DNA of 64,000 nt from NCBI RefSeq assembly GCF_016863655.1, contig NZ_BOPH01000072.1, positions 1 through 64,000 on the forward strand, written 5' to 3'. The position numbers and the translations under genes are program-made. Shown piece by piece: positions 10,994-47,642 of this stretch (positions are counted from its first letter, which is position 1; each line of letters opens with the position of its first letter). Under the pieces are notes generated by a model. It was not told where the DNA came from. It worked only from the letters and a program-made list of their open reading frames with translations, and did no database searches. This stretch comes from Virgisporangium ochraceum (GTDB lineage: Bacteria > Actinomycetota > Actinomycetes > Mycobacteriales > Micromonosporaceae).

Positions 10994-10997
10994 GTCC

Positions 10998-11046
10998 GCG
11001 CGGCCTTCCCCGCGCGGCCTCCCCTTGCGCGGCCTTCCCCGCGCGG
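10998..11046. repeat. Short GC-rich tandem repeat
   Basis: Three consecutive 14-15-bp copies of GCGCGGCCTTCCCC (10998-11011, 11012-11026 with small changes, 11027-11040) plus a GCGCGG remnant, just after the DUF305 stop. The copies can pair with the GCGCGG flanks and may serve as a terminator. Confidence 0.7.
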
Positions 11047-11128
11047 AGCGCGGTGGGTAACCCGGAGGCGGGTGCTGTTGGGGCTCTGCTATGGTTCTGT
11101 GGTCGCACGGACTGGATCTGGCGATTTG

Positions 11129-11200
11129 GCCCCCGTAGCTCAGGGGATAGAGCACCGCCCTCCGGAGGCGGGAGCGCAGGTTCGAATCCTGCCGGGGGCA
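11129..11200 (+). tRNA. tRNA-Arg (anticodon CCG)
   Basis: A full cloverleaf: acceptor GCCCCCG pairs with CGGGGGC, the D arm contains AGCTCAGGGGATAGAGC, and the anticodon stem CCGCC/GGCGG holds the loop CTCCGGA with anticodon CCG (reads CGG). The T arm contains GGTTCGAATCC, and the discriminator is A. CCA is not encoded. Its 3' half is the attachment site of the element that follows. Confidence 0.97.
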
Positions 11201-11201
11201 C
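11160..11201 (+). repeat. attL: 42-bp direct repeat in the tRNA-Arg 3' half
   Basis: Identical over 42 bp to 26591-26632. It starts in the anticodon loop, runs through the T arm and acceptor and ends one base beyond the discriminator, so integration left the tRNA intact. Confidence 0.95.
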
Positions 11202-11209
11202 CCAAGCGA

Positions 11210-11246
11210 AAGGCCCACTACCAGGGGAAACTCTGTGGTGGGCCTT
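11210..11246 (+). terminator. Intrinsic terminator after tRNA-Arg
   Basis: AAGGCCCAC (11210-11218) pairs perfectly with GTGGGCCTT (11238-11246), followed by CTTC. It lies 10 nt after the tRNA and just inside the element. Confidence 0.75.
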
Positions 11247-11342
11247 CTTCGTATGTCCGGCTGTGCTCGCCCAGATCTGGCTGTTTACGGGTGTCCACGC
11301 CAAATACGCGCGCAAGTTTTGGCGCGGCTAGCCTTGGCGACC

Positions 11343-11999
11343 ATGGTCGAGACGCCGAGGTCGCAGTACGCGCAGATCGCTTCCGAACTGCGGGCGCGCA
11401 TCGACGACGGCAGGTACCCGCCGGGTTCGTCGCTGCCGAGCGAGACCCGGCTGGCTGAGGAGTTCGGGGTCACCCGGGTCACGATCAACAAGGCACTGAC
11501 CCTGTTGCGGACGTCCGGCGATGTGAAGGTGCGACGTGGCGCCGACACGCGGGTTCGGAGCCTGCCTCGGATCACGCGGGAGGCCGGGCAACCCGACGGT
11601 CTCGAATCGAGGTATCGCGAGATCGGCCAGGTGTCCGCTCCCCCGGCTGTAGCTTCGACGTTGCGGCTCGGCGAGGGTTCGCCGGTGCTGGTGCGACGGA
11701 TGCTCATGCTCGCCGGCGGCGAGCCGGTACAGATCTCGGATTCGTACTACCGGTGGTCGACCGACGAGGCGCTCTTGCGGGAAGACGTCGACCCGCGCTC
11801 GCGGCTGGCACCAGTGCGCTTCGCCGAAGACGTGACGGTCCGCGTGCCCGACGAGGCCGAGCAGCGAACGTTGGAGCTGGAAGCGTTTCAGACCGTGGTC
11901 GAGATCTGGGGCGTCGCCTACGCGGCCGAGGACGTGCCGGTCGAGGTGCGCGTCCAGGTGATGCCGAGCCACCTATGGAAGCTCAAGTACCGGTGGTGA
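11343..11999 (+). CDS. GntR/HutC-family transcriptional regulator (UTRA domain)
   Basis: 218 aa. The winged helix lies at about residues 5-70 (YAQIASELRARIDDGRYPPG, then LPSETRLAEEFGVTRVTINKAL), followed by a UTRA ligand domain (SPVLVRRMLMLAGGEPVQIS). In AICEs such KorSA-like regulators repress transfer and excision genes. ATG 11343 is chosen because the helix starts a few residues in; the open frame extends upstream to 11235 without a better signal. It is the first gene inside attL. Its 3' end overlaps the next, opposite gene by 17 bp. A candidate operator is CGTCTAGACG, found three times in the element. Confidence 0.88.
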   Translation: MVETPRSQYAQIASELRARIDDGRYPPGSSLPSETRLAEEFGVTRVTINKALTLLRTSGDVKVRRGADTRVRSLPRITREAGQPDGLESRYREIGQVSAPPAVASTLRLGEGSPVLVRRMLMLAGGEPVQISDSYYRWSTDEALLREDVDPRSRLAPVRFAEDVTVRVPDEAEQRTLELEAFQTVVEIWGVAYAAEDVPVEVRVQVMPSHLWKLKYRW

Positions 12000-12330
12000 C
12001 TTGGCCTTGAGCGTCGCACTCGGCCAACTTGGGGCACGGGAAGACGCGTGGCGGCAGGCCCGGAAGCACATCGTGGCCGCGCCGTTGGCAGACGCGGCAC
12101 CTCGTGGCCGAGCCGAGGGTCCAGGCCACAAAGCGGCGGTACAGAAGTGCAGGGCTCGGCGTTCCGAGGTCGACGGCGGCCACCATCGACAGGGTGGCGA
12201 GCAGTCTGGAGAGCACGTCCGGGTCTTCCTTGTGAATATCCCGTAGTTGCCGTCGGGCTGGCGGGCACGGCCAGTTCTCGCCATCGATCCGGCATGTCCA
12301 CTCGGGACGTTGAACGCGGTGTTGGCTCAT
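11983..12330 (-). CDS. Small Cys-containing AICE protein, unknown function
   Basis: 115 aa starting MSQHRVQRPEWTCRIDGENW at ATG 12330. The pattern RPEWxCxxDGxxWPCPPARxxL recurs in small proteins of streptomycete and micromonosporal elements, often filed as flavin reductase without evidence. A second cysteine pair (CRVCQRRGH) and CPKLAEC near the end suggest a zinc-binding protein. It is convergent with the GntR gene and divergent from the XRE gene at 12527. No function can be assigned. Confidence 0.6.
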   Translation of the reverse strand: MSQHRVQRPEWTCRIDGENWPCPPARRQLRDIHKEDPDVLSRLLATLSMVAAVDLGTPSPALLYRRFVAWTLGSATRCRVCQRRGHDVLPGLPPRVFPCPKLAECDAQGQVTTGT

Positions 12331-12466
12331 GACGGACGGCGATCGCAGGTCCAGCCGCCGCATTCCGGACACCATCGCGACTTCACTTTGAAGGCGAACA
12401 GACCGACGAGGAATCCGACCACGGCCACCACTACGTAGATCACTTCGCACTCCCTTGATCACTATG

Positions 12467-12484
12467 TGCATCATTCACGATGCA
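12467..12484. promoter_or_regulatory. Inverted GATGCA half-sites upstream of XRE gene 1
   Basis: TGCATC (12467-12472) and GATGCA (12479-12484) are inverted with a 6-bp spacer. The same half-site occurs upstream of the second XRE gene (14099-14115), so it may be an XRE operator. Confidence 0.35.
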
Positions 12485-12488
12485 TACT

Positions 12489-12498
12489 CGTCTAGACG
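12489..12498. promoter_or_regulatory. CGTCTAGACG palindrome, copy A (candidate GntR operator)
   Basis: A perfect 10-bp palindrome 29 bp before the XRE start at 12527. Two more identical copies precede other regulator genes of the element. Confidence 0.5.
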
Positions 12499-12526
12499 TC
12501 CAGACAGCGCAAGTGAGGTGAGCGAC

Positions 12527-13423
12527 TTGAACTCGGCAGACGCGTCACGGAAACTGCGTCGCGTGCCGCCCAAGCCGCAACGCCGAACGCCCACCGTCCG
12601 TGGGCGTCAACTCGGGATCGAGTTGAAGCGGCTTCGCGTCGCGGCGGGGATGACGGCCGATCAGGTCGCCGACGAGATTGGTTGCTCGCAGGGCAAGGTC
12701 TCCCGGATCGAACTGGCGCAGACCGGCGTCAGCAAAGGCGATCTGTTCCTGATGCTGGCGCTGTATGGCGTCACGAAGCAGGAACAACAAGACCAGTTCT
12801 GGCGGCTCGCGCGGGAGGCCCGTGGCCGAGGATGGTGGGAGGACTACCGCGACATCATTGCGAGCAGCCTCAGCACCTACATCGCGTTCGAAGCCGAGGC
12901 ATCCGAGCTGCATACGTGGTCGTGGGGAACGATAAACGGCCTCTTGCAGACCGAGGCGTACGCGCGGGCGACCTTCACGGGTGAGCCGGCCGGCCGCAAC
13001 CGCACCAGCAACGAGGTCTCCAAGCTTGTGGAAGCCCGGCTGTCGCGGCAACAGCGGCTCGCGGACGGAGCCTTGAAGCTCTGGGCGGTGTTGGACGAGT
13101 CCCTACTGCGCCGACCCATCGGCGGCCACGCCGTTCTCAGGGATCAGCTCGACTACCTGCTCGCACCACCGGCGAACGTGACAATCCAGGTTCTCGAACA
13201 GCAGACGATCTGGCACGCCGGGCTCAATGGCGCGTTCACGGTCATGGATTTTCCCGGCCATCCCAGCGTGGTGTTCGTGGAGACGTTGACGGGTGACCTC
13301 GACGTCGAGGGCGAGGACGACGTGGCGCGCTTTACGCTTGCGTTCGACTACCTTCGCGCGGAAGCGGTGGGGGTACAGGCGTCGCGCGACATCATCGCCC
13401 GCGCCCGGGATGAATGCGAGTAG
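12527..13423 (+). CDS. XRE-family regulator with DUF5753 domain (1)
   Basis: About 298 aa. The helix-turn-helix lies at about residues 25-80 (LGIELKRLRVAAGMTADQVA, then DEIGCSQGKVSRIELAQ). The C-terminal DUF5753 sensor-like domain contains the family marks WWEDYRD, LLQTEAYARA, DESLLRRP and IQVLEQQTIWHAG. Such genes work with a small DUF397 partner, which follows 13 bp downstream. TTG 12527 has a GAGGTGAG ribosome site; GTG 12518 is the in-frame alternative. A CGTCTAGACG palindrome and GATGCA half-sites lie directly upstream. Confidence 0.88.
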   Translation: MNSADASRKLRRVPPKPQRRTPTVRGRQLGIELKRLRVAAGMTADQVADEIGCSQGKVSRIELAQTGVSKGDLFLMLALYGVTKQEQQDQFWRLAREARGRGWWEDYRDIIASSLSTYIAFEAEASELHTWSWGTINGLLQTEAYARATFTGEPAGRNRTSNEVSKLVEARLSRQQRLADGALKLWAVLDESLLRRPIGGHAVLRDQLDYLLAPPANVTIQVLEQQTIWHAGLNGAFTVMDFPGHPSVVFVETLTGDLDVEGEDDVARFTLAFDYLRAEAVGVQASRDIIARARDECE

Positions 13424-35281: not shown

Positions 35282-36541
35282 GTGACCGTCAGCACCATCC
35301 ACCCCGCCGGGCGGGGCGGCCGCCGCCGGAGGGTGACCGCGCTCGCGGGCGCGGCCCTCGTCGCGACGACCGCCCTGGCGGTGGCCGACGCACCCGCCGC
35401 GTCGGCCGCGACCCCCGACACCAACGCCACGTACGTGTTCGTCAACCGCCACAGCGGAAAGGCGATGGACCTGTGGGAGTGGTCGACCGCCGACAACGCA
35501 CCCGTGAACCAGTTCGCCCGTAACGACCTCGCCGTGCAGCAGTGGCGGTTCGTGTCGGTCGGCAGCGGCTACTACCAGGTCCGCTCCGTCCACAGTGGAA
35601 AGGTCCTTCAGGTTCCCGACGCCAACAACGGGAGCTTCCTGGTCCAGGCCACGTCGTCGAGCTCGAACACCCGCCAGCACTTCCGCCTCGCGGACTCCGA
35701 CAGCGGCTACGTCCGCTTCATCAACCGCCACTCCAACAAGGCACTGGACGTGTGGGAGTGGTCGACCGCCGACGGCGGCCGCATCGCCCAGTACGACGAC
35801 CTCGACGGCTGGAACCAGCAGTGGCAGCTCGCCACCGTCGGCGGCACCACGCCGCCGCCCACCGGCGCCTGGCCGACCCCGACCGGACAGACCGCGGTGA
35901 ACGGCACCGTCGCCGTCTCCGGCACCTACGACGGCGGCATGCGCCGCTTCTGCTGCATCGGCGACGGCGGCCAGGAGGAGGACCAGGACCCGATGTTCCG
36001 GCTCGTCAACGGCGCGACGCTGCAGAACGTCATCATCGGCGCCCCCGCCGGCGACGGCGTGCACTGCGAAGGCTCGTGCACGTTGCGGAACGTCTGGTGG
36101 GAGGACGTGGGCGAGGACGCCGCCACCTTCCGCGGCAGCGGCTCGCCGACCTTCCTGGTCGACGGCGGCGGGGCCCGCAGCGCCAGCGACAAGGTGTTCC
36201 AGCACAACGGCGCTGGGACGCTGACCATCCAGAACTTCCAGGCGAGCAACTTCGGCACCTTCTACCGCTCGTGCGGGAACTGCTCCACCCAGTACCGCCG
36301 CAACGTGGTGATCCGCAACGTGACGCTGACCCGACCGGGCAACACCGTCGCCGGCATCAACACCAACTACGGCGACACGGCCCGCTTCACCGGGGTCACG
36401 ATCGTCAACGACTCCAGCCGGGCGATGGTGATCTGCCGCAAGTACACCGGCAACAGCAGCGGCAACGAACCGACCCAGGTCGGCACCGGAGCCGACGGCA
36501 CCAACTGTTTCTACTCCGCGTCCGACCTGACCTACCGCTGA
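35282..36541 (+). CDS. Secreted pectate lyase (PL3) with RICIN lectin domain
   Basis: 419 aa. A long Arg-rich signal peptide with hydrophobic core (LAGAALVATTALAVADAPAA) ends near residue 42. Residues 48-195 are a ricin-type beta-trefoil with its QxW marks (VQQWRF, NQQWQL) and repeated SGKAMDLWEWSTAD / NKALDVWEWSTAD, expected to bind galactan or pectin. After a Pro-Thr linker, residues 200-419 are a PL3 beta-helix (CCIGDGGQEEDQDPMFRLVN, GDGVHCEGSCTLRNVWWEDV, GEDAATFRG). It should cleave polygalacturonate by beta-elimination with calcium. Divergent from the sigma factor; a strong terminator follows. Confidence 0.92.
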   Translation: MTVSTIHPAGRGGRRRRVTALAGAALVATTALAVADAPAASAATPDTNATYVFVNRHSGKAMDLWEWSTADNAPVNQFARNDLAVQQWRFVSVGSGYYQVRSVHSGKVLQVPDANNGSFLVQATSSSSNTRQHFRLADSDSGYVRFINRHSNKALDVWEWSTADGGRIAQYDDLDGWNQQWQLATVGGTTPPPTGAWPTPTGQTAVNGTVAVSGTYDGGMRRFCCIGDGGQEEDQDPMFRLVNGATLQNVIIGAPAGDGVHCEGSCTLRNVWWEDVGEDAATFRGSGSPTFLVDGGGARSASDKVFQHNGAGTLTIQNFQASNFGTFYRSCGNCSTQYRRNVVIRNVTLTRPGNTVAGINTNYGDTARFTGVTIVNDSSRAMVICRKYTGNSSGNEPTQVGTGADGTNCFYSASDLTYR

Positions 36542-36545
36542 GACG

Positions 36546-36582
36546 CCGGCGGCCGTCGTGGTGGGCACACGACGGCCGCCGG
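36546..36582 (+). terminator. Terminator between the two pectate lyase genes
   Basis: A perfect 15-bp stem: CCGGCGGCCGTCGTG (36546-36560) with CACGACGGCCGCCGG (36568-36582), loop of 7, starting 4 nt after the stop codon. Without a U-tract, as is common in actinomycetes. Confidence 0.85.
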
Positions 36583-36604
36583 TCCGCTATCGAGGAGCAC
36601 TGTC

Positions 36605-37783
36605 ATGTACCGAGTACTGCTGGTGGCCGCGCTGGTCGGCGGCTCGCTCGCCGTGGCGTCACCCGCCAGCGCCACGACGACGCTGGTCGTGGCGACCAAC
36701 GGCAACGACGCGAACGCAGGAACCGTCGCCTCGCCGCTGGCCAGCCTGGCCCGCGCCGTCGAGCTGGCCACCCCGGGCACCACGATCGCCCTGCGCGGCG
36801 GCACGTACCCCTTCACCACCAACGTGCGGATCATGAAGGACGGCACGTCGTCGTCGCCGTACACGATCACCAACTACAACGGCGAGAAGGTCGTGCTGGA
36901 CGGGGAGAACCTGCCGCACACCCCGGCCCCGGTCGGCGGCAGCATCCCCAACCTGGAGCGCGGCGTCCTGCACATCGAGGCCGACTACTGGCGGGTGCGC
37001 GACGTCGAGATCGCCAACGGTCCCTACGCGATCTTCTGCCGCGACTGCAACAACAACATCTTCGAACGGCTGATCACCCGCGACAACTACGAGTCCGGCC
37101 CGCAGATCCAGAGCGCCTCGTCGAACAACCAGGTGATCAACCTGGACAGCTACGGCAACCGCGACCCCCGCAAGAACGGCGAGAGCGCCGACGGCCTGGC
37201 CATCAAGGAGGGCTCGGGATCCGGGAACGTGGTACGCGGCGCCCGCCTGTGGAACAACTCCGACGACGGCTTCGACGCGTGGCTGTTCACGTCGCCGATC
37301 CTGATCGAGAACTCCGCGGCCTGGGGCAACGGGGTGAACCGGTGGAACCTGCCGTCCTATGTGGGCGACGGCAACGGGTTCAAGATGGGCGGAGGGGACC
37401 CGGACCCGCCGGCCAACCACACGATCCGGAACAGCTTCTCGTTCCAGAACGCGGTGGGCGGGATCATCGACAACGGCAACCCGGGGACGATCACGGTCGA
37501 CAGGTGCTCGGCCTGGCGCAACGGGGACAGCGGGTACAAGTTCGGGAGCTCGACGTCGCGGCTTACGGGGAACCTTGCCCTGACCAACGGCGCCGGGGTG
37601 TCCCTCGGTAGTGGGGTCTCCGCGAGTGGGAACTCGTGGAACATCAAGTCGTCGTGGACGGCTTCGGATGTGGCGAGTACGGATCCTTCGGCGTTGACGG
37701 GGGCCCGGAACCCGGACGGGAGTATCCGGTCGTCCAGCTTCCTGCGTCCCAACAGCTATCCGAACCTTGGCGCGCGAATCTGA
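36605..37783 (+). CDS. Secreted pectate lyase (PL9-type beta-helix)
   Basis: 392 aa. Signal peptide YRVLLVAALVGGSLAVASPA with cleavage after ASA. The rest is a ten-coil beta-helix beginning TLVVATNGNDANAGTVASPL. The calcium-site cluster is seen as NNSDDGFDAW (about residue 220), and the presumed catalytic Lys as GNGFKMGGGDPDPPANH (about 260), as in family 9 lyases. It should depolymerise pectate outside the cell, together with the PL3 enzyme upstream. The sigma factor at 33953 carries an inactive relative of this same domain. Confidence 0.9.
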   Translation: MYRVLLVAALVGGSLAVASPASATTTLVVATNGNDANAGTVASPLASLARAVELATPGTTIALRGGTYPFTTNVRIMKDGTSSSPYTITNYNGEKVVLDGENLPHTPAPVGGSIPNLERGVLHIEADYWRVRDVEIANGPYAIFCRDCNNNIFERLITRDNYESGPQIQSASSNNQVINLDSYGNRDPRKNGESADGLAIKEGSGSGNVVRGARLWNNSDDGFDAWLFTSPILIENSAAWGNGVNRWNLPSYVGDGNGFKMGGGDPDPPANHTIRNSFSFQNAVGGIIDNGNPGTITVDRCSAWRNGDSGYKFGSSTSRLTGNLALTNGAGVSLGSGVSASGNSWNIKSSWTASDVASTDPSALTGARNPDGSIRSSSFLRPNSYPNLGARI

Positions 37784-38027
37784 AGGCCGTACCGGGAGGC
37801 GCACCGGCGGGCTCTCGATCTCTAGCGGGTGAATCAACCGGCTTAGCGGAATCGTTATGTTCCGGCTCCGCGCCGCCAGCGGCCGAATCTTCGCAGCCTA
37901 CGGCGCTTCAAGATTCGCGAAACGGGGCGGGACACCTCACGCAGGAGGCAGGATGATGGAATATTGTGCCGCGTGCACGTGAATCCACACGCGGCGCATT
38001 CACGTGCAGAGGGAGCGTGAGCCACGC
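37784..38027. other. Intergenic region before the peptide gene
   Basis: 244 bp. It holds an 8-bp inverted repeat CGAATCTT (37884-37891) / AAGATTCG (37910-37917), a weak terminator for the lyase gene. The promoter of the peptide gene must be here, but no clear -35/-10 pair is visible. Confidence 0.4.
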
Positions 38028-38198
38028 ATGGACGGCCCCGAGGTCGAGACGACCCTGGTTGACCTGAGCAGCGCCTCCCTGGACGAGGTACACCGCGACT
38101 TCGCCTCTCTGCAGGGAGCGGTCGACCTGCTTCTCAGCCAGATCGAACGTCCGCGCTACAACATCGGAAACACCGGCCCTCCCGGCCGTGCCGACTGA
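38028..38198 (+). CDS. Candidate RiPP precursor peptide (FxSxx-like leader)
   Basis: 56 aa. MDGPEVETTLVDLSSASLDE opens a leader that resembles FxSxx-COOH precursors (an LVDLSxxSLxEV pattern and an amphipathic helix FASLQGAVDLLLSQIE). The C-terminus is RPRYNIGNTGPPGRAD instead of the usual Phe-x-Ser end, so the core would be different, rich in Asn, Gly and Pro with one Tyr. ATG 38028 is the only sensible start; an AGGGAG sits rather far upstream. The HExxH modification gene starts 71 bp downstream. No radical SAM maturase is present in the window. Confidence 0.6.
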   Translation: MDGPEVETTLVDLSSASLDEVHRDFASLQGAVDLLLSQIERPRYNIGNTGPPGRAD

Positions 38199-38269
38199 GC
38201 CCCCCGACCGGGTGAAACCAGCGGCGTGCCGCCGATCGTCATGCCCACGCAGGTCCGCTACCCTCAGGC

Positions 38270-40069
38270 GTGGATTCTGCCCGCCCAGGGGAACTCACCC
38301 ACCATCAGCTGCCTGTCGCGTTCCTGGAAACGCTCGCGTGCGGGTCGGGTTCGCCGGAGATCACCCGATTTCTCTTCTCTGAGACGGAACGCAGCCGCCG
38401 GCTGCTCCTGATCGTCACTCTGTTCAAACACTGTGAGGCGCCCGGCGCGCTCGGCCCCCTGCCTTCCGCCCGCACCGCCTGGTCGGTCTTCAGCCGAGCC
38501 AGGGAGACCGACCAAGCGGCGGTCGACGATCTCCTGATGCACCCACAGGTCGGCAACGCGGCTGCGTACGCCCTTCGCCGGCAACGCGGCGGCGTCGACA
38601 GTGACTTCCCGATCTGGACCGACCTCGGCCTGATCCATGTCCTCGCCCTGATCGCGGCGGCGCGGGTCGGGCTGAACTGGTCGACCAACCTGCCCACGCG
38701 CTACGGCACCGTCATGCTGCCGACGCTCGGGCTGGCCAAGTTCTCCCCCGCTGTCGCGGCATCCACCGTGAACGCCCGTACCGACGCCGGCTCCATCTAT
38801 TTGTCCGCCGACGACACGCAGGTGGTGGTTGGCCCCGATCCCGACGACGACACCGACCACTGGTGGCATCTGCGGCACATCGTCGCCGGTTCGAAGTTGC
38901 CGTTGACCGTCTGGCTCGACGACCTGGACCCGTTCCGCGACCTGGCCGACCCGGTGCCGCCGTCGCGGCTGGACGACCGCTCCGTCGAGCGTTGGCAGGA
39001 TCTGCTCGACGACGCCTGGACGCTGCTGTGTACGCATCACGCCGAGTCCGCCGCCGCTCTGGCCGAGGGTGTCATCTCTCTGGTGCCCCTGCCCGGCCGG
39101 CCCGGTCAAGAGACTCGTAGCGCGTCCAACGGAGAAGCGTTCGGCAGCGTGATGGTGTCGCAACCGCCGGATGCGGTCACGCTCGCGGTCGCGTTGGTAC
39201 ACGAGTTCCAGCACATCAAGCTGGGCGCGTTGATGCATCTGGTGCCACTGGCGGAGGACGACGGGTGCTACTACTACGCGCCGTGGCGCGACGACCCGCG
39301 TCCCCTGGGCGGTTTCCTCCAGGGCATCTACGCGTTCTTCGGAATCGCGGAGTTCTGGCGCCGGCACCGACTGGTCGTCCACGGCTCCGACGCCGTCCTG
39401 GCGAGCTACGAGTACCTGTACGCGCGAGGTCAGACGATCGAGGCGCTGCGGTCCGTCAGAGACGCACTGGCGCTCACCGACGAGGGCCGCGAGCTCGTGG
39501 TCCGGCTCGCCTCGGTCGTCGAGACTTGGCGGTCGGATCGGGTCGAACCGGAAGTCGAACGGCTGGCCCGGCTGACGGCCGGCTGTCACCGCACGGCCTG
39601 GCGGCTACGGCACCGGCAGGTGCCGGCCGTCGACGCCACCGCGTTGGCGGAGGCCTTTTCCGAACGTCGGTTGCCCGGGTTCCCGCCGCTACCGGCGGTC
39701 GGGCCCCACCCGACGCAGCGGTGGCCACAACGCATACCCGATCTGGCCCGCCGACGCATCCTCGGCGTCGGCACGCCCGCATCCCCGGAACCGCTCGCGA
39801 CCGCCGACCTCGCCCTCGTGCACGGCGATGTCGATACCGCGCTGAGCATCTACCTGAACCGGCTGGCCCGTTCGCAACACGGCTCGGACGAGGAGATCCA
39901 GGCCTGGGTGGGTCTCGCGCTCGCGCTGTCCGAGAGCGGCGGCGGCGAGGCGGCGAAGGCACTGACGTCCCGACCCGATCTCGTCCGCGCCGTCCATGCC
40001 GCGTCGGGGAAGTCGGCCGACCCCGTCGAGGTGGCTGCCTGGCTGGCGCAGGTCATCAAGGACGACTGA
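38270..40069 (+). CDS. HExxH-type peptide-modification protein
   Basis: 599 aa from GTG 38270 (a TACCCT box ends 5 nt upstream, so the message may be leaderless). The family, found beside FxSxx-COOH peptides, is annotated as alpha-ketoglutarate-type HExxH peptide beta-hydroxylases. Marks are the N-terminal GELTHHQLPVAFLETLACGS, central VALVHEFQHIKLGALMHLVP (HEFQH at about residue 310) and the following YYYAPWRDDPRPLGGFLQGI. A helical C-terminus with TPR-like end (GDVDTALSIYLNRLARSQHG) may bind the peptide or the TPR protein. Likely substrate is the 56-aa peptide upstream. The stop is 4 bp from the convergent TPR gene. Confidence 0.85.
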   Translation: MDSARPGELTHHQLPVAFLETLACGSGSPEITRFLFSETERSRRLLLIVTLFKHCEAPGALGPLPSARTAWSVFSRARETDQAAVDDLLMHPQVGNAAAYALRRQRGGVDSDFPIWTDLGLIHVLALIAAARVGLNWSTNLPTRYGTVMLPTLGLAKFSPAVAASTVNARTDAGSIYLSADDTQVVVGPDPDDDTDHWWHLRHIVAGSKLPLTVWLDDLDPFRDLADPVPPSRLDDRSVERWQDLLDDAWTLLCTHHAESAAALAEGVISLVPLPGRPGQETRSASNGEAFGSVMVSQPPDAVTLAVALVHEFQHIKLGALMHLVPLAEDDGCYYYAPWRDDPRPLGGFLQGIYAFFGIAEFWRRHRLVVHGSDAVLASYEYLYARGQTIEALRSVRDALALTDEGRELVVRLASVVETWRSDRVEPEVERLARLTAGCHRTAWRLRHRQVPAVDATALAEAFSERRLPGFPPLPAVGPHPTQRWPQRIPDLARRRILGVGTPASPEPLATADLALVHGDVDTALSIYLNRLARSQHGSDEEIQAWVGLALALSESGGGEAAKALTSRPDLVRAVHAASGKSADPVEVAAWLAQVIKDD

Positions 40070-40072
40070 CGG

Positions 40073-43000
40073 TCAGAAGGGCATCGGGTCGACATCACAG
40101 TTGGCCCGGACCCGAGCGTTGGCGGCAACGATCGCCGGATGGCCAGAACCGAGCACACGGACGTATCCGGCCACCGCCTCGTCGAACAGGCGCTCGCCCT
40201 CCTCGCCCCGGCCGAGAGCCATGAGGTCGAAGGCGACGTTGATCGCGCACGCGAGGGTGGACGGATGGTCGGGACCGGTGACCTGACGCCACCGGCGCAC
40301 CGTGTTCACGTCGAGCTCGTACGCTCGACTGTGTTCACCGAGGGCCGCCAGATCACTGCCGAGGTTGATCTCGCACGTCAACGTCATGACATGGTTCCGG
40401 CCCAGTGTCCGCTCAAGCCCGGTTAGGGCTTCTATGTTGTGCAGATACGCGTCCTCCGGGTTGCCGAGCAGACGGAGAACGATGCTGAGATTGGTTCGCG
40501 CGTACCAGGTGTAGGGGTGGTCGGGCCCGAGGCGCATCCGGTAGCGCTCCGCGGTCTGCATCGCGAGTGTCCGCGCCCTAGGCAGGTCGTCGCTTTCGCG
40601 GACGTCCACCGCGAAGTCGAGTTGTGCGGCGATCGTGTCCGGATGGTCGGCCCCGAACCGGTCCTGAAGCCGGTTCATGGTGTCCTCCGCCAGCTTGTAC
40701 GCGCCTTCATGGTCTCCGGCGCGGCGCCGGGCCACCGCAAGGTTGCGCGCCACCCGCACCGTGTCGGGGTGGGCCACGCCGAACAGGGTCACGTGCTGCG
40801 TGTAGCTCCGCTCCGCCAACCGGTGCGACTTGAGGTACTCGCCGCACTCACGTTCGTCGATCGTCAATCCGTTGAGGGTACGGAGGGTCTCGGGATGGTC
40901 GTCGCCGAGTACCGGAACCCGCCGTCGGTAGGTGTCCCCGTCCAACTGCCGCGCGGTGCGGAACTCACCGGTCAACCGGAGGCTCACCCCCAGGAGGTGA
41001 GCGGCTCTGAGCGTGTCGGGGTCGTCCTGACCGTAGAGCCGACGGGACCGCTCGAAGGTCTCCAGGTCGAGATCGCGAGCGTCGTTGAAACGTCCGGCCA
41101 CCCGCAGCGTCGAGGCGACCATGCCCATGGCGTCGATGGTCTCCCCGTCGTCGGGGCCCACCGCGCGCCGGTAGCGGTCGAGTGTGTCGCGGTGGATCGC
41201 GGACGCGGCATCGTTGTCGCCCTCGAGGAACCAGAAATAGCCCAGCCACTTCGCCGCCCGGAGCGTCTGCGGATGGTCGGCGGTGAGCCGTTCCCGCCAG
41301 TCGTCGACCACCAGTTGCGCGAGGTCGCGGCCGCTGGCGTAGTCGCCCCAGGAGAAGTAGAACGCGACGAGGTTGAGTACGAGCTCCCGGGCCCAGTCGT
41401 CCTCGCACGTGTAAGCATTCGACGCCGTCAGGTGGGACGCCAACGCCTGGTAACGCAGCCAGTGCGTCGGATCGCTGGGTTCGCCGGGCTTTCCACCGCT
41501 CGCGAGCAACACATGCGCGCCATGCTCCATCCCGGTGCGTTGGCTCTCCGGCATCCGGGCCTTGAGCTCCGCCTGCACCAACCGGTGCAGTTGCAGGGAG
41601 TTGGTCCGGTGGTCGATCCGGGCAAGCACGTACTTCTGGATGTCGCGGATCGCCTGCGCGAGCTGGCTCGAGCTCTGCAGCGCCCGGTCGAGTTCCGGTG
41701 CGATGGGGGTGGACCGCGGCCCGGCGAAGAGCTCCCGGCTGATCGGTTCCGGTGCGAAGAACGAGCAGACCTGCAGCAACTGCAACGCGGCGGGATTCTC
41801 GACCGCCAGCCGATCCAGCGCCACGTGTGCCGCCGCCGCTACCGGCATTTCGTACCGTGGAGCCGGGTGCATGTGGGCGAGTTCAACCTGCTTCTGTTCG
41901 AGGAGCGCGAGATACTCCCGGGCCGACATGCCCGTCGTCGCCAGCCATGCCGAGGCGTGCTCGATGGCCAGCGGAAGGTCCTCCAGCTCGGACGCGAGCT
42001 GATCGGCGTCCTCGTCGTCCAACCCTGGGTTACGACGCTGGAGAAGCCGGACGCTCTCGGGCCGGCTGAACACGTCGACCTCCAGCGTCTCCGCGATCCG
42101 GCTCCACTCCTGATTCCGTGAGGTCACCAACACCCGACCGGTGCCCGCCTCCGGAAGGTACTCCCGCACGGTGTCAAGGGTCTCCGCGTTGTCGAACACC
42201 AGCAGCCAGTTCGAGTAGGGTGTGCCGGCCCGCAGTGCCGCCCGCACCCGGGGAACCGCGGTGATCACCTCGTTTCCGACGTCCAGCCCGAGTCGGTTGC
42301 CCAGTTCGATGATCGACGCGAGGATCTGCGCCGGGCGTTCGGACGGGATCCACCAGATCACCTCGTAGTCGGCACGATGCCGGTAGGCGTACTCGATGGC
42401 GATCTGCGACTTCCCCACCCCGCCCTCGCCGTGGAGCGCCTGTGGCAGAACCGCGGCCACACTCTCGGTCTGCAGCCGGCGCTCCAGCTGTTCGAGCAGT
42501 TCCCGTCGACCCGTGAACACCGGGTTGCGGGTCGGAATGCTGCCCCATACGGCCGGACCGGTCTCGTCGCTCTGACCGTCGAGGAGAGCCTGGACGGACA
42601 GGATCGGGTCGTCTCCCCCCAACAGCGGCTCGGTCGGACCGCCGGCGCCGACCGGGAACAACGGTTCGCCAACGGCATAGGCATCGTCATTCGGTCGGTC
42701 GGGCATGACCTCACCACTCTCGGTCGCGTCGGCGGGGGGTACGCCGGATTCAGGTTCGTCGGTCGGCCCGCTTGTGGCGGTGCCGACGGGTCGGGAAGGG
42801 GCGCCTGGCTCGTCGCGTTCGAGGGCGGCTATCGCTTCGCCCAGGCGGTGGGCGCGGCGGGCGTACGGCCCGCTCAAGGCGTTCAGGACCGCCAGTTCGA
42901 TGCGGGCCAGCGGTAAGGTCTCGCGGGTCACCAGCGGGTCGCTGTCTGGTACCTCGACCGCTGTGGTCAGTGCCAGCGTCGCGGGGCGGCGGAGGTTATG

Positions 43001-44299
43001 GTGGGCGGCGACGGCCCGCAGCACGCGTGCAGAGTCGTGGCGGGTGCTCCCGGCGAGGAGGGCCTCGCGCACGCCGGCGGCGAAGTCGAGGGCGCCGTCG
43101 ACCCGTACCACCAGGTCGCTGGTGACCACCTCGGCCAGGTGCAGCGGCGCCGACTCGGGCAGCAGCGACCGCTGGATCCGGCGCAGCAACGGCAGGTCCA
43201 GCGGCGCCGCGGCCAGGTAGGTGGCCAGCCGGAACGCCGTCGACGAGGCGCTGGAACGGAAGCGCAGCACCAGCTCGGTCGCGTCGGTGGGTGGGTCGTC
43301 GGGCGTCGCGGCGCCGGAGCCGACCACGTGGACCAGCCCGTCGACCCATCCGGTCGGCTCGGTCACCAGGCGGGCCCACCACGAGATCCAACGCGGGTTC
43401 AGTTCGAGCACCGGCACCGCCAGGCCGTCGGACCGCAGCGGCTCGTCGAGGGTCGAGCTCGCCAACTGGACCTCGAGAGCGCTGGTCGGCGCGACCGCGC
43501 GCGGCGGGCGCAGCCTGGCCCGCCGCGGCGCCAGGGCCGTGCGGTGCCAGTGCTTCTGCGGGAACGGGTTGACGAACGCGAGCGGACCGCTGCGACCCCA
43601 CAGCCGCAGCATCGCCTGCGTCCGCTCATCCCTCCACAGTGGATTGAGACCGTCGGTCAGCACGAGGAACACCTGCCGGCCCGTGGAGTCCAGGGGTTCG
43701 GCCGGGCTGCGCGCGGACGAGCCGCCGGGTCCGTGCGGCCGGAGGCCGGGCGTCAGGACGAACGTGCGCACGCCGCGGAACGAGCCGTGCCGTTCCAGCT
43801 GTGACCGCAGCGCGGCGACCGTCGGCCGCCAGACGGCCATCGACGGGCTGCCGTCGACCACGAGCACGAGTGAGAGCCAGCGCGCCTCCACGAACCGGTA
43901 CTGCGGCAACCATCGACCCGTGTCGGCGGCGTACTCGGCGGTGCGTTCCTCGTCGGGCTCGGTCTCGGTGACCGAGACGACCCGGCGCTTGAACGGGCGC
44001 AGCGCCTGGCCCAGCCGGTACGTTCCGGGCAGGGCGGCGACCGGACCCGACACCGGGTCGAGGTCGACCAGCGCCTCGATGCGCTCGGCGGTCTCCCGCC
44101 ACTCCACCGGTGGAGGGGGCCGGGCCGCGCCTGCGGCCGACGAGGGGGTGGCGGCCGGAGGGCGGGCGTCGACCGCCGGCGCCGGGTCCGCCGCAACGTC
44201 CACAGTGGATGGATCGTCCACCGGAGACCGCGTAACCGCGGCCAGCCACAGCGCGTCGGCCACCTCCCGCCAGTGCGGCATCCCGGGACCCGACGCCAC
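40073..44299 (-). CDS. vWA - NB-ARC - TPR STAND protein (FxSxx-associated, vWA/MoxR/VMAP type)
   Basis: 1408 aa. Residues 1-135 are a Pro/Ala-rich SAV_2336-like N-terminus. Residues 140-300 form a von Willebrand A domain with LSLVLVVDGSPSMAVWRPTV (MIDAS D-G-S-P-S). At about 590-900 is an NB-ARC ATPase: FTGRRELLEQLERRLQ, P-loop LHGEGGVGKSQIAIEYAYRH, WWIPSERPAQI and LPLAIEHASAWL. From about 990 there are roughly eight TPR repeats of the DHPETLR type. The NB-ARC/TPR part matches the STAND protein of FxSxx-COOH peptide systems; the vWA part is the usual partner of MoxR and VMAP. It starts GTG 44299, 3 nt after the MoxR stop. Confidence 0.87.
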   Translation of the reverse strand: MASGPGMPHWREVADALWLAAVTRSPVDDPSTVDVAADPAPAVDARPPAATPSSAAGAARPPPPVEWRETAERIEALVDLDPVSGPVAALPGTYRLGQALRPFKRRVVSVTETEPDEERTAEYAADTGRWLPQYRFVEARWLSLVLVVDGSPSMAVWRPTVAALRSQLERHGSFRGVRTFVLTPGLRPHGPGGSSARSPAEPLDSTGRQVFLVLTDGLNPLWRDERTQAMLRLWGRSGPLAFVNPFPQKHWHRTALAPRRARLRPPRAVAPTSALEVQLASSTLDEPLRSDGLAVPVLELNPRWISWWARLVTEPTGWVDGLVHVVGSGAATPDDPPTDATELVLRFRSSASSTAFRLATYLAAAPLDLPLLRRIQRSLLPESAPLHLAEVVTSDLVVRVDGALDFAAGVREALLAGSTRHDSARVLRAVAAHHNLRRPATLALTTAVEVPDSDPLVTRETLPLARIELAVLNALSGPYARRAHRLGEAIAALERDEPGAPSRPVGTATSGPTDEPESGVPPADATESGEVMPDRPNDDAYAVGEPLFPVGAGGPTEPLLGGDDPILSVQALLDGQSDETGPAVWGSIPTRNPVFTGRRELLEQLERRLQTESVAAVLPQALHGEGGVGKSQIAIEYAYRHRADYEVIWWIPSERPAQILASIIELGNRLGLDVGNEVITAVPRVRAALRAGTPYSNWLLVFDNAETLDTVREYLPEAGTGRVLVTSRNQEWSRIAETLEVDVFSRPESVRLLQRRNPGLDDEDADQLASELEDLPLAIEHASAWLATTGMSAREYLALLEQKQVELAHMHPAPRYEMPVAAAAHVALDRLAVENPAALQLLQVCSFFAPEPISRELFAGPRSTPIAPELDRALQSSSQLAQAIRDIQKYVLARIDHRTNSLQLHRLVQAELKARMPESQRTGMEHGAHVLLASGGKPGEPSDPTHWLRYQALASHLTASNAYTCEDDWARELVLNLVAFYFSWGDYASGRDLAQLVVDDWRERLTADHPQTLRAAKWLGYFWFLEGDNDAASAIHRDTLDRYRRAVGPDDGETIDAMGMVASTLRVAGRFNDARDLDLETFERSRRLYGQDDPDTLRAAHLLGVSLRLTGEFRTARQLDGDTYRRRVPVLGDDHPETLRTLNGLTIDERECGEYLKSHRLAERSYTQHVTLFGVAHPDTVRVARNLAVARRRAGDHEGAYKLAEDTMNRLQDRFGADHPDTIAAQLDFAVDVRESDDLPRARTLAMQTAERYRMRLGPDHPYTWYARTNLSIVLRLLGNPEDAYLHNIEALTGLERTLGRNHVMTLTCEINLGSDLAALGEHSRAYELDVNTVRRWRQVTGPDHPSTLACAINVAFDLMALGRGEEGERLFDEAVAGYVRVLGSGHPAIVAANARVRANCDVDPMPF

Positions 44300-44302
44300 C
44301 GC

Positions 44303-45304
44303 TCACCGCTCCAGCGACAGCGAGTGCCAGATGGCGGTGACAAGGTTCTGCCACGCCTGCCGGTCCTCCGCGTACGCACCCGACGCGGTGAGGAACGTCG
44401 CGTTGAGCAGCTGGTCGCGGGCCAGCGAGTCGCCGGCCGGCCGGTTCAGGAAGTCGCCGATGAGCTCGCGCTGGGCGTCGGCCAGCATCGGCAGCTGAGC
44501 GTGGATCATCGCGGCGAGGTCGTCGGCGGTCGGCGGGGCCAGCTCGAGTCGCAGGCACCGGCGCAGGAACGCCGGCGGGAACTCGCGCTCGCCGTTGCTG
44601 GTGATCACCACGATCGGGAACGCGCGGCAGAGGACGCGGCCGTCGCGGATCTCGGCCTGGCGGTCGGGATCGTCGGTGAACACCGACACCCGCGGCTCGA
44701 ACCGCCGGATCCGCACCAGCTCCGGAACCGTGAACTCGCCGTTCTCGAAGATGTGCAACAGGTCGTTGGGCAGGTCGACGTCGCTCTTGTCGAGCTCGTC
44801 GACCAGGAGGACGCGCGGCCGCTCGTAGCTCAGCAGCGCCGTTCCCAGCGGGCCCAGCCGGATGAAGTCACCGACGCTGGGTTCGGCATCGCCGGCGCCG
44901 CGCCCGATCGCGTACTGCGCCCGGCCGACCGCGTCGTACTCGTACAGACCCGACCGCAGCGTCGTGCGGCTGGTGACCGGCCACTGCAGCACCCGGCCGA
45001 GGCGAAGCTCCCGGGCCACCCGGTAGGCGATGGCCGACTTGCCCACACCCGGGTTCCCGGTGACGAGCAGCGGCCGCCGCAACAGGATCGAGGCGTTGAC
45101 GAGGTCGCACTCGCGGACGTCGGCCCGGCGCCGGACCCGCGCGTCGACCCGGCCCAGCTTCCGGCCCACCTCGCCGACGTCGTCGGGTGGCGCCGGTTGC
45201 ACCGGACCACCGTCGAAGTCGCGCCACGGCGGCGATGGCGGCAGGTCGACCGGATCGGTCGGTACGCCGTCTCCCTTGTAGAGCCACCATGAGGGAATCG
45301 TCAC
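44303..45304 (-). CDS. MoxR-type AAA ATPase
   Basis: 333 aa from GTG 45304, overlapping the upstream stop by 4 bp. Walker A LLVTGNPGVGKSAIAYRVAR (about residue 84), Walker B RVLLVDELDKSDVDLPNDLL (about 170), sensor 1 FPIVVITSNGEREFPPAFLR and an arginine-finger RRCLRLEL. MoxR ATPases work with vWA proteins as chaperone-like remodelers. Here it sits between VMAP and vWA genes, forming the ternary set described for NTP-dependent conflict systems. Confidence 0.92.
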   Translation of the reverse strand: MTIPSWWLYKGDGVPTDPVDLPPSPPWRDFDGGPVQPAPPDDVGEVGRKLGRVDARVRRRADVRECDLVNASILLRRPLLVTGNPGVGKSAIAYRVARELRLGRVLQWPVTSRTTLRSGLYEYDAVGRAQYAIGRGAGDAEPSVGDFIRLGPLGTALLSYERPRVLLVDELDKSDVDLPNDLLHIFENGEFTVPELVRIRRFEPRVSVFTDDPDRQAEIRDGRVLCRAFPIVVITSNGEREFPPAFLRRCLRLELAPPTADDLAAMIHAQLPMLADAQRELIGDFLNRPAGDSLARDQLLNATFLTASGAYAEDRQAWQNLVTAIWHSLSLER

Positions 45305-47388
45305 GCGCGCGGCCCTCCATCGTGGACGGTTCTGGTCGGGTCGTCCCACAGCAGTGCGAGATGACGCCCGGTGTGGGCGGCCTCCGACGCGACCGCAGCC
45401 TCCCTGCGCAGCGCCCGCACCCGGTTCGGCAGGTCGGCCGGGTCGCCCTGCAGCAGGCCGGCGATCACGTCGGCCGGCACGGGCTCGGCCGGTGCCCGGC
45501 GGTCCCACAGGATCACCGGGATGCCGGCGTTCAGCGCGGCCCGCAGCTCGGCCCGGCCGGCGTCGTCGCGCGGGGACCCGCTGAGCACCACCGTGGTCAG
45601 CTCGGGGTCGTCACGCAGGCGCGTGTTCCAGTCGTGCAGGTCGTGGTCGCCGGCGACGCGTCCCCAGTACGGGCGGTGCCGGGGCGGATGGCGCCACAGC
45701 GCCTTCCACCGGTTCGCCCACACCCGGTGCCGGTAGCCCGCGCGCATCCGGTCGAGGCTGCGGACCACCACCGGGTAGTCCACACACAACGGTGTCGGCG
45801 CCGGCTCCTCCAGCTCGGTGTGCCACCACTCGACCGCCTCGTCGATCAGATCAGTCGGCAGCAGCATCTCCACGAGCACCGGTTCGCTGCTGTGCCGCCA
45901 CGCCGTCTCCGCGTGCCGGATCGCCGCCTGCAGCGCCTGTTCGACCCGCCGGAACGGGGTCTCCCGCGGTTCACCGGGCTCCGGCTGCCAGCTGGTGGCG
46001 GCCCGCTGGATCCAGTACCGCACCTCGCAGCGCTCCGGGTCGATGCCGTCGCGCTCGACCTGGATCACCACGCACGGCTGCACCGCCGGACCGTCGCCCC
46101 GCTCGCGACGCTGCCGCACGGCGACCCGGTGCCCGGCCATCACCTCGGTGAGGTGGTGCCGCTCGGCGACGCCGTCGACCCACTCCCGCAGCTTCGCCCC
46201 GGCACGGGGTCCGACCCGTTCGGCGATCTCCTCGGCCAGCGCCAGCGCGGGCGGCACCCGGTCGGCGCCGGCGTTGACGCCGGCGAGATGGGTGAAGAGC
46301 TCCAGCGCCGTCGTGGGCGGCCGGTCCGGGACCGGCGTGAGCCGGCCGATCGCGGCCCGCCAGACCGCCGTGAGGTCGAGGTCACCGACGTCGGCGAGCA
46401 GCGTCCGCAGCACGTCGAGCTCCGGCTCGGGCAGCAGCGCGAGCACCCCGGTGCCACCGCTGCGCAGCACCGGGAACGGCCGGCACTCGGCCAGCACGGC
46501 GCGCAGGAACCCGGCCGCGGCCAGCGACGAGTACGGGTACCAGCGCTCGTCGCGGGGCTCGGCGCAGTAGTCGACGATGCCCCGCACCATGAACCAGCCG
46601 ATGCCCCGGCTCGCGGCGCTGGCGATCACGCCGGCCGCCTCCATCTCGAAGGCCAGCACCCGGTGCCGCTCGGCGAGCTCGTCGCGCCGGTGCTCGTCGA
46701 GCAGCAGCGCGTCGCCGGTACCGATCCGGCCGTAGTGCACCCGGGGAACGCCGGCGACGTGACCCGACTCGTCGGCCGGCGGGTGGTCCACCGGCACGCC
46801 ACCGCGCAGCAGGCGGTCGGCCGACGCGGGCGGCCGGGCGAACACCGCCATCGGCTGGTCGTGTGCCGCGGTCAGCAGCCGCTGCCACTCCAGCGGCGCC
46901 CGGAACGCCTTCTCCTGGATGCGCCGCACGGCCCGCACCAGGTCGGCCGACGGCTCGGCGGCCGGCCGCCGCGGCTCGGGCGTCCCCGGCACCTGCCGCA
47001 CGTGCCCGTAGTCGACGATGCCGTCGACCGCGACCACGACGTCACCCAGCCGCACGTGCCGGGACGGCCGGTCGGGCGCCGGCACGCCGCCGGCGACCCC
47101 GGTCAGTGCCACGCACCGGATGCGCGGGAACGTGCGCAGCATGTCGGTGCACACCGTGGCCGCGTTGCGGGTGTTGTCGTTCGGCATCACCGTGAGAACC
47201 ACGCGGTGCGGGCGGCCCGGAACGGCGCTGTCGAGCCTGCCGACGCGGTAGTCGTTGGGATCCCCGTCGTAGCTAATCTCCGCGGTATCGGCGATCAGAT
47301 TCGCCATTGCGGCGCTTTCCACCGGCAGGGCAGCGACAATTCCAATGGTCACGTCGTCACGAAAATCATTCGGAAAAGGCGTCGTCAT
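45301..47388 (-). CDS. Nucleoside phosphorylase - EAD - VMAP-C fusion protein
   Basis: 695 aa from ATG 47388. Residues 8-305 are a PNP/UDP-phosphorylase-like domain: VTIGIVAALPVESAAMANLI, CVALTGVAGGVPAP, LAFEMEAAGVIASAASRGIG (EMEAAG, about 248) and FMVRGIVDYCAE. Residues 320-400 look like an effector-associated domain (LPEPELDVLRTLLADVGDLD). Residues 420-695 match the VMAP C-terminal domain: PVLVEMLLPTDLIDEAVEWW, YPVVVRSLDRMR, AALNAGIPVILWDRRAPAEP and GRHLALLWDDPTR. The phosphorylase would be the sensor or effector acting on nucleosides. First gene of the VMAP-MoxR-vWA operon. Confidence 0.87.
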   Translation of the reverse strand: MTTPFPNDFRDDVTIGIVAALPVESAAMANLIADTAEISYDGDPNDYRVGRLDSAVPGRPHRVVLTVMPNDNTRNAATVCTDMLRTFPRIRCVALTGVAGGVPAPDRPSRHVRLGDVVVAVDGIVDYGHVRQVPGTPEPRRPAAEPSADLVRAVRRIQEKAFRAPLEWQRLLTAAHDQPMAVFARPPASADRLLRGGVPVDHPPADESGHVAGVPRVHYGRIGTGDALLLDEHRRDELAERHRVLAFEMEAAGVIASAASRGIGWFMVRGIVDYCAEPRDERWYPYSSLAAAGFLRAVLAECRPFPVLRSGGTGVLALLPEPELDVLRTLLADVGDLDLTAVWRAAIGRLTPVPDRPPTTALELFTHLAGVNAGADRVPPALALAEEIAERVGPRAGAKLREWVDGVAERHHLTEVMAGHRVAVRQRRERGDGPAVQPCVVIQVERDGIDPERCEVRYWIQRAATSWQPEPGEPRETPFRRVEQALQAAIRHAETAWRHSSEPVLVEMLLPTDLIDEAVEWWHTELEEPAPTPLCVDYPVVVRSLDRMRAGYRHRVWANRWKALWRHPPRHRPYWGRVAGDHDLHDWNTRLRDDPELTTVVLSGSPRDDAGRAELRAALNAGIPVILWDRRAPAEPVPADVIAGLLQGDPADLPNRVRALRREAAVASEAAHTGRHLALLWDDPTRTVHDGGPRA

Positions 47389-47642
47389 GCCGGGCGCCAA
47401 GTCGCCATTCCCCCAACAGAACCCATTGAAGTATTCCCCCACACGGAAATGACAGTATGGCAAATGACACCGCCTCCGTACAGGGCCGTCCAAACGGGCC
47501 ACATTGACGCATGGCACTGAATTTCGCCGATCAGCGGATTCAAATGTCCGGTGCCGCAAATGGCGCAGACGTCATCGCGAATGCCCCGGGGCCGACCCGT
47601 ACGGGATCGCCCCTATTGCCCCGATCGGGCACCATCGACAGT

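What the first reader, a model, noticed from the sequence alone, without database searches (positions are those of the whole stretch)
38028..38198. Unusual precursor peptide with an Asn/Gly/Pro core
The leader resembles FxSxx-COOH precursors but the C-terminus is RYNIGNTGPPGRAD, without Phe-x-Ser, and no radical SAM maturase gene is present. The HExxH enzyme alone may modify it, for example by hydroxylation, giving a RiPP class without the cyclophane crosslink.
Basis: partly seen in the sequence, partly recalled or inferred. Interest (0 to 1): 0.72.

Follow-up and report, generated by a model that had tools for sequence, protein, structure and literature searches.

The report
Conserved peptide made without radical SAM
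A short bacterial gene encodes a peptide whose last dozen residues are almost invariant in related bacteria; it sits beside an iron-oxygenase-type enzyme and an immune-like gene set, and belongs to a peptide type that was sketched in 2020 but whose chemistry has not been tested.

Summary
A 56-aa gene (38028-38198) lies 71 bp before an HExxH gene, with no radical SAM gene in the window. The Asn/Gly/Pro C-terminus is a real conserved core, but not 'YNxGNxG'. In 46 homologues (Micromonosporaceae) it is N-[LI]-G-x(1-3)-G-P-P-G-R-[AV]-D-COOH. Tyr is found in 4 of 46, the last Pro and Asp in 46 of 46. None of the 46 peptide loci has a radical SAM gene. The HExxH enzymes of this peptide class form one clade, homologous to the alphaKG-dependent peptide hydroxylase ChlH. 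The leader is homologous to FxSxx-COOH leaders.

It is not a new class. Kaur et al. 2020 (eLife) described an 'RxD' peptide type in VMAP conflict systems: zincin-like enzyme, no radical SAM, NB-ARC ATPase fused to vWA. That is this gene layout.

New here: a defined core; enzyme and peptide types that track each other; a near-constant PNP-superfamily partner (37 of 41 clade loci, 1 of 27 others); and a testable mechanism. Two characterised HExxH enzyme types act on the residue just before a C-terminal R-x-D. By analogy this enzyme should oxidise the GPPG/RAD junction, perhaps removing GRAD to leave an amide. That chemistry is inference.

The parts
38028..38198 (+). Precursor peptide gene, 56 aa plus stop; leader about residues 1-40, homologous to FxSxx-COOH leaders
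   Evidence: dN/dS well below 1; 46 aligned homologues (window included)
38148..38195 (+). Conserved C-terminal core RPRYNIGNTGPPGRAD (residues 41-56); invariant elements N45, P51-P52, G53, R54, D56
   Evidence: N 44/46, first P 44/46, second P 46/46, G 43/46, R 45/46, D 46/46; Tyr position Y in 4/46
38184..38195 (+). GRAD, the RxD-COOH tetrapeptide; proposed docking and oxidation site by analogy with ARMD of PosA/PflA and R(V/T)DN of PesA
   Evidence: GRAD 26, GRVD 14 of 47 tails; analogy from PMC12636437 and PMC13060819
38270..40069 (+). alphaKG-HExxH-type peptide hydroxylase homologue, 599 aa
   Evidence: TIGR04267 E 1.3e-48; ChlH 8s5f E 2.5e-15, 22nu E 1.3e-54
39200..39214 (+). HEFQH metal-binding motif (residues 311-315)
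   Evidence: H311, E312, H315 in 49 of 49 ungapped rows
39281..39304 (+). PWRDDPRP motif (residues 338-345), shared with ChlH
   Evidence: R340, D342, R344 in 49 of 49 ungapped rows
40073..44299 (-). vWA-type (SAV_2336 N-terminal) + NB-ARC + TPR protein, 1408 aa; putative STAND sensor
   Evidence: NF040586 878 bits, NF041121 350 bits; NB-ARC, TPR_10, TPR_12
44303..45508 (-). MoxR-like AAA ATPase (start codon uncertain)
   Evidence: AAA_5 E 1.7e-7
45301..47559 (-). PNP-superfamily domain fused to VMAP-M0 and VMAP-C (start codon uncertain)
   Evidence: VMAP-C E 7.7e-51, VMAP-M0 4.6e-22, PNP_UDP_1 1.2e-14; PADLOC 'Effector PN-superfamily' 2.3e-11
37974..38008 (.). Perfect 11-nt inverted repeat (13-nt spacer) just upstream of the peptide gene; possible operator, unproven
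   Evidence: sequence not conserved in L003 or L004

Best explanation
This is the 'RxD-type' RiPP-like arm of a VMAP/MoxR/vWA conflict system. Shown: the peptide has an FxSxx-like leader and an invariant C-terminal core ending GPPGR[AV]D-COOH, it is coded next to an alphaKG-HExxH-type oxygenase homologue of a matching clade, and no radical SAM enzyme is nearby. Inferred: the leader docks on the HExxH enzyme, and the C-terminal R-x-D places the residue just before it (Gly53, or the Pro-Pro next to it) at the Fe(II)/alphaKG centre, where the enzyme oxidises it. Most specifically, it attacks the Gly alpha-carbon and removes GRAD, leaving ...NTGPP-amide; alternatively it beta-hydroxylates Pro or Asn without cleavage (see rivals). 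The mature peptide is then inferred to act as a signal to the NB-ARC-TPR protein that controls a PNP-superfamily effector (possibly an ATP or nucleotide nucleosidase).
For: (1) Core conservation in 46 homologues, stronger than the leader; dN/dS 0.10/1.05 in the core. (2) No radical SAM in 46 of 46 peptide loci. (3) HExxH protein homologous to the hydroxylase ChlH, with the same HExxH...PWRxDxRP residues. (4) HExxH tree: the PPGRxD enzymes form one clade of 41 leaves (support 0.88) among 120; the neighbouring leaves go with NPQR[LI]D, GERID and NPGRAE peptides; radical SAM loci lie elsewhere in the tree. (5) In a census of 60 HExxH loci drawn without regard to peptide, R-x-D tails occur in 6 of 15 radical-SAM-less loci with a candidate peptide and 0 of 29 radical SAM loci with one (p 0.0007). 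(6) Precedents: PosC/PflC oxidatively remove a C-terminal ARMD, and partly GRMD in an Ala-to-Gly variant, leaving an amide (PMC12636437); PesO beta-hydroxylates the Pro just before R(V/T)DN (PMC13060819). (7) PNP domain at 37 of 41 clade loci, in three arrangements.
Against: No chemistry was measured. In PosC's substrate R, M and D could each be replaced by Ala without losing cleavage, so R-x-D need not be the docking element there. Not all radical-SAM-less HExxH loci carry R-x-D; some carry FxS-like tails (GFNSA[ILF]: L150, L170, L191, L195). In 13 of 47 peptides the HExxH gene is 2.4-4.6 kb away, not adjacent. One peptide gene survives next to a decayed HExxH gene (L063) and one has no HExxH gene nearby (L068). 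No leader peptidase or exporter was identified. The AlphaFold model was too poor to use (mean pLDDT 50.6).
Confidence: 0.6

Rival explanations
1. The HExxH protein is a zinc metallopeptidase that cuts the precursor and frees a C-terminal peptide toxin or signal, as Kaur et al. 2020 proposed; there is no oxidation.
For: Published reading for this type; zincin-like HExxH; PflC hydrolyses its peptide at the same site when the leader is missing.
Against: The protein matches the alphaKG-HExxH family well above its cut-off (165.4 vs 40 bits) and ChlH, which is an Fe/alphaKG hydroxylase; the PWRxDxRP residues shared with ChlH are kept in 49 of 49 rows.
Confidence: 0.15
2. Simple beta-hydroxylation (Asn45, or Pro51/Pro52) without backbone cleavage; R-x-D is only a recognition tag and stays on. 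(A branch of the best explanation; the two overlap.)
For: Known targets of the family are Asp, His, Gln, Phe and Pro; Asn45 (44/46) and both Pro (44/46, 46/46) are invariant; PesO modifies Pro next to R(V/T)DN.
Against: Gly, not Pro, directly precedes R-x-D in 41 of 46, and the residue at that place is the one attacked in both characterised R-x-D substrate types.
Confidence: 0.35
3. A radical SAM enzyme coded elsewhere in the genome (FxsB at C101) acts in trans and makes a cyclophane on Tyr44.
For: The genome does code one FxsB above cut-off; the leaders are homologous.
Against: That FxsB has its own adjacent peptide (GFNSFVDYDS) and HExxH gene; the Tyr44 position is aromatic in only 6 homologues (Y 4, F 2), so a crosslink there cannot be the conserved feature.
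Confidence: 0.04
4. Not a RiPP: the small protein is an unmodified regulator whose C-terminal R-x-D tail binds a partner (for example the TPR domain).
For: TPR domains can bind C-terminal acidic tails (general knowledge, recalled); the R-x-D carboxylate end is the most conserved part; a peptide persists where the HExxH gene is decayed (L063).
Against: HExxH clade and peptide core track each other, as expected if the core is the enzyme's substrate.
Confidence: 0.12

Closest known systems
RxD-motif peptide type of VMAP-ternary conflict systems (Kaur et al., eLife 2020, PMC7159879)
   Same: Small precursor with R-x-D C-terminus, zincin-like HExxH gene, no radical SAM, NB-ARC ATPase with TPRs fused directly to the vWA protein, MoxR and VMAP genes.
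   Different: The paper treats the enzyme as a peptidase and, in the text seen, gives no core beyond R-x-D. Here the core is N[LI]G..GPPGR[AV]D. 16 of 46 peptide loci show NB-ARC-TPR plus PNP without vWA or VMAP-C in the fetched stretch, whereas the paper calls the type strictly VMAP-associated.
FxSxx-COOH cyclophane RiPP (FxsA/FxsB)
   Same: Homologous leader; TPR protein of the same NCBIfam equivalog (NF040586); HExxH of the same family.
   Different: No Phe-x-Ser, no FxsB at the locus; no TIGR04268 hit for this peptide.
PosA/PosC and PflA/PflC (Pseudomonas; PMC12636437)
   Same: alphaKG-HExxH enzyme, leader-dependent oxidation, C-terminal A-R-M-D tail (G in a tested variant).
   Different: Those clusters also hold an MNIO-nitroreductase, a GNAT and transporters; the substrate core is poly-Gln; the leader is like nitrile-hydratase leader peptides.
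Nitrilobacillin PesA/PesO (PMC13060819)
   Same: Pro immediately before a C-terminal R(V/T)D(N) is beta-hydroxylated by an alphaKG-HExxH enzyme.
   Different: An MNIO and an asparagine-synthetase-like enzyme also act; found in Peribacillus.
ChlH (PDB 8s5f)
   Same: Sequence homology over the HExxH domain, E 2.5e-15.
   Different: ChlH acts on a peptide that already carries a radical SAM cyclophane (text of PMC12636437).

Membership tests
RxD-type peptide-processing system (Kaur et al. 2020) | Precursor ends in R-x-D | tested here: met
   GRAD at the C-terminus; 45 of 46 aligned homologues end R-x-D, one ends GHSD
RxD-type peptide-processing system (Kaur et al. 2020) | Zincin-like HExxH gene at the locus, no radical SAM | tested here: met
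RxD-type peptide-processing system (Kaur et al. 2020) | NB-ARC ATPase with TPRs fused to the vWA protein; VMAP and MoxR present | tested here: met
   window; but 16 of 46 homologous peptide loci show neither vWA nor VMAP-C in the fetched stretch
RxD-type peptide-processing system (Kaur et al. 2020) | Sequence identity to the paper's own listed RxD peptides | not testable with these tools
   the source-data list is a supplement and was not read
FxSxx-COOH RiPP (TIGR04268) | Phe-x-Ser at C-terminus; TIGR04268 score | tested here: not met
   no hit up to E 10; window peptide absent from the 53 places
FxSxx-COOH RiPP (TIGR04268) | FxsB radical SAM maturase at the locus | tested here: not met
alphaKG-HExxH peptide hydroxylase (TIGR04267) | Family score above curated cut-off | tested here: met
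   165.4 bits vs cut-off 40
alphaKG-HExxH peptide hydroxylase (TIGR04267) | Metal-binding HExxH and residues shared with ChlH kept | tested here: met
   49 of 49 ungapped rows, alignment
alphaKG-HExxH peptide hydroxylase (TIGR04267) | Fe(II)/alphaKG-dependent hydroxylation of its peptide | not testable with these tools
   needs an enzyme assay
RiPP | Post-translational modification and leader removal shown | not testable with these tools
   no mass data; no leader peptidase identified in the locus

The most novel reading that the evidence does not exclude
R-x-D-COOH is a portable tag for alphaKG-HExxH enzymes. In this actinobacterial clade, GR[AV]D is oxidatively removed to give a C-terminal Pro-amide peptide, without radical SAM or copper PHM/PAL chemistry. 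This amidated peptide is an immune-type messenger that switches an NB-ARC-TPR protein and its PNP-superfamily effector.
Probability: 0.25. Interest if true: 0.82.

Novelty: new variant of a known kind. Interest (0 to 1): 0.52.

Why it matters
It turns a vague 2020 label (RxD peptide, presumed protease) into a defined peptide core with a matching enzyme clade and a specific predicted reaction that one co-expression and a mass spectrum can test. If right, bacterial conflict systems use an oxidised, perhaps amidated, peptide signal tied to a nucleosidase-type effector, and the residue before R-x-D would predict the products of many untested HExxH enzymes.

Tried and rejected
Structure: an AlphaFold model of the HExxH protein from 4 sequences was poor (mean pLDDT 50.6, pTM 0.44), so no fold search was run. 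Sequence matches to PDB chains were used instead.

YNxGNxG as core: rejected, since Tyr is in 4 of 46 and the residue after Gly varies.

Copies on plasmids: the peptide has no match in PLSDB. The HExxH protein has 5 relatives there at about 30-33% identity.

Promoter and terminator scans of 37700-40200 gave nothing.

Literature: searches for 'FxSxx-COOH', 'VMAP MoxR vWA', HExxH terms and cyclophane/FxsB terms listed no paper that, by title and abstract start, characterises an RxD-type actinobacterial peptide. Subscription papers (for example Morishita et al. 2024 on ChlH) were not read. Searching ATP nucleosidase and PNP/NB-ARC terms gave only general immunity papers; that PNP domains can be ATP nucleosidases in defence is mostly recalled, and one review passage mentions ATP nucleosidases.

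Caveats on counts. Of 58 places, 47 peptide sequences were read (45 fetched regions, one holding two, plus the window); 11 weak places (E 1.8e-4 to 0.0094) were not fetched. One truncated peptide (L083) was dropped from the 46-row alignment. The census used 60 of the more than 100 HExxH places, in order of score, skipping those already held and one at a contig edge. Among the 18 radical-SAM-less census loci, 15 had a candidate peptide, two of them (L146, L176) doubtful because they lie on the opposite strand; L149 was read later, also ends R-V-D, and is not in the 6 of 15. Two of the six (L180, L185) have one or two residues after R-x-D. Fisher tests treat related loci as independent, so p values are too small. 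The 27 comparison loci for PNP were seen over about 11-30 kb; the remaining census loci were seen only over about 8-10 kb and are not counted. PNP was not found at L051, L055, L062 and L081, the first three also after extension.

Full report
The gene. The ORF at 38028-38198 encodes a 56-aa peptide ending RYNIGNTGPPGRAD. The next gene, 38270-40069, codes for a 599-aa HExxH protein. Converging on it from the other strand are a 1408-aa vWA-type/NB-ARC/TPR protein (40073-44299), a MoxR-like AAA ATPase (44303-45508) and a PNP/VMAP-M0/VMAP-C protein (45301-47559). None of the 30 Radical_SAM matches in the genome lies in the window. Selection on the peptide is clear: dN/dS is 0.10/1.05 in the core and 0.33/1.19 in the leader against Virgisporangium aurantiacum.

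Homologues. A search of 354 genomes of the same family with the first three peptides gave 58 places in 39 genomes at E <= 0.01. I read 47 of these peptides and aligned 46. The core is N (44/46), [LI], G (38/46), one to three residues, then G (43/46), P (44/46), P (46/46), G (43/46), R (45/46), A or V (41/46), D (46/46). The residue before N is Tyr in only 4 of 46.

Radical SAM. A profile of three FxsB-type or related enzymes and a CxxxCxxC scan found radical SAM genes in none of the 46 peptide loci (L040-L084 and the window segment), and only in L005, L087 and L088 among all 53 sources scanned. The window's own genome has one true FxsB (C101), which sits with its own FxS-like peptide and its own HExxH gene.

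The leader. A profile of the 46 peptides searched in 394 genomes of the class found mostly leader-only matches, several of them true FxSxx peptides (GFDSSI, GFQSSI, GFQSNI) at E 3.9e-6 to 1.8e-5. TIGR04268 itself does not recognise this peptide.

The enzyme. It scores 165.4 bits against TIGR04267, cut-off 40. The best PDB matches are 22nu (E 1.3e-54) and ChlH 8s5f (E 2.5e-15). The family's rSAM-fused hydroxylase is described in PMC12636437 as an Fe/alphaKG enzyme. H311, E312, H315, R340, D342 and R344 are kept in 49 of 49 ungapped rows. A tree of 120 HExxH domains puts the enzymes of all PPGRxD loci in one clade of 41 leaves, support 0.88. Two of these (L048, L057) had no peptide label in the script because the peptide gene lies farther off in the same locus. 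The neighbouring leaves belong to NPQR[LI]D, GERID and NPGRAE peptides, all without radical SAM.

Census. To avoid choosing loci by their peptide, I took 60 HExxH loci from relatives. 42 have a radical SAM gene and 18 do not. R-x-D at or next to the C-terminus occurs in 6 of 15 radical-SAM-less loci with a candidate peptide and 0 of 29 radical SAM loci with one (p 0.0007, loci not independent). L149, read later, also ends R-V-D. Four radical-SAM-less loci have FxS-like tails instead, so absence of radical SAM does not imply R-x-D.

PNP link. A PNP-superfamily domain is found at 37 of 41 loci of the clade: fused to VMAP as in the window, as PNP-EAD2 beside an EAD2-NB-ARC-TPR protein (L042), or fused straight to NB-ARC-TPR (L048). 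Among 27 other HExxH loci seen over comparable distances it occurs once, at L138/L211, beside a second NB-ARC-TPR gene about 4 kb away. PADLOC labels the domain 'Effector, PN-superfamily'. Because the clade is one lineage, this is one association, strengthened by the three different fusions.

What is known. Kaur et al. 2020 (PMC7159879; I read section 24 and passages found by term) divide such peptides into FxSxx, RxD, acidic and FtsH-associated types. They say radical SAM goes with FxSxx, and that for RxD the NB-ARC ATPase is fused to vWA. The window matches. They treat the HExxH protein as a peptidase. Later work (PMC12636437, passages and Discussion; PMC13060819, passages) shows that relatives are alphaKG oxygenases. 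PosC and PflC remove a C-terminal ARMD oxidatively, leaving an amide, and PosC removes GRMD partly in a variant. PesO hydroxylates the Pro before R(V/T)DN. In each the residue just before Arg is attacked. Here that residue is Gly, behind Pro-Pro.

Mechanism. Shown: conserved peptide, matching enzyme clade, no radical SAM, immune-like partners. Inferred: leader docking, oxidation at the GPPG/RAD junction, signal to NB-ARC-TPR, PNP effector. Against the docking idea, R, M and D of ARMD are singly dispensable in PosA. I put oxidation of the core at 0.6 and GRAD removal with amide formation at about 0.25.

Verdict. Real and well conserved, a member of an already named type, with a sharper definition and a testable chemical prediction. 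New variant of a known kind.

Noticed in passing
window 37965-38008: Two overlapping 11-nt inverted repeats (one perfect, TGCACGTGAAT...ATTCACGTGCA) directly upstream of the peptide gene, possibly an operator; not conserved in sequence in L003 or L004.
   Followed up: partly
L088 (G000:C104:20000-38000), about 8400-13400: A cluster that looks like YcaO and TfuA genes (by eye, not scored) next to a radical SAM gene and a short HExxH gene (74 bits to TIGR04267): a possible hybrid RiPP cluster in the same genome.
   Followed up: no
L086 (G000:C143:38000-57000), 8500-10603: A second radical-SAM-less HExxH/NB-ARC/VMAP locus in the same genome with a different peptide core (SISGYQGSFSGQMRPSEEAPADSAG); a relative in L149 ends ADRVD.
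   Followed up: partly
L063 (G350:C23:144800-162800), 8868-9700: In V. aliadipatigenens (G350; contig length equal to that of the L004 record) a second PPGRAD peptide gene is intact but its HExxH gene is decayed.
   Followed up: partly
L069 (G059:C1:250000-269000): Two RxD peptide/HExxH pairs lie within 18 kb of each other, one with a divergent core (NMSESGPPTRAD).
   Followed up: no
L122 (G453) and L123 (G683): Probable relatives outside the family with R-x-E tails (RPRANALGGSNPGRAE; RPRSNAMGGGNPTGGTGARAE), no radical SAM found at the locus.
   Followed up: partly
window 35282-37783: Two secreted-looking genes upstream (one with repeated QW-type carbohydrate-binding pattern by eye, one matching pectate lyase PelN at E 4e-31), apparently not part of the system although the second is also next to it in L003.
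   Followed up: no
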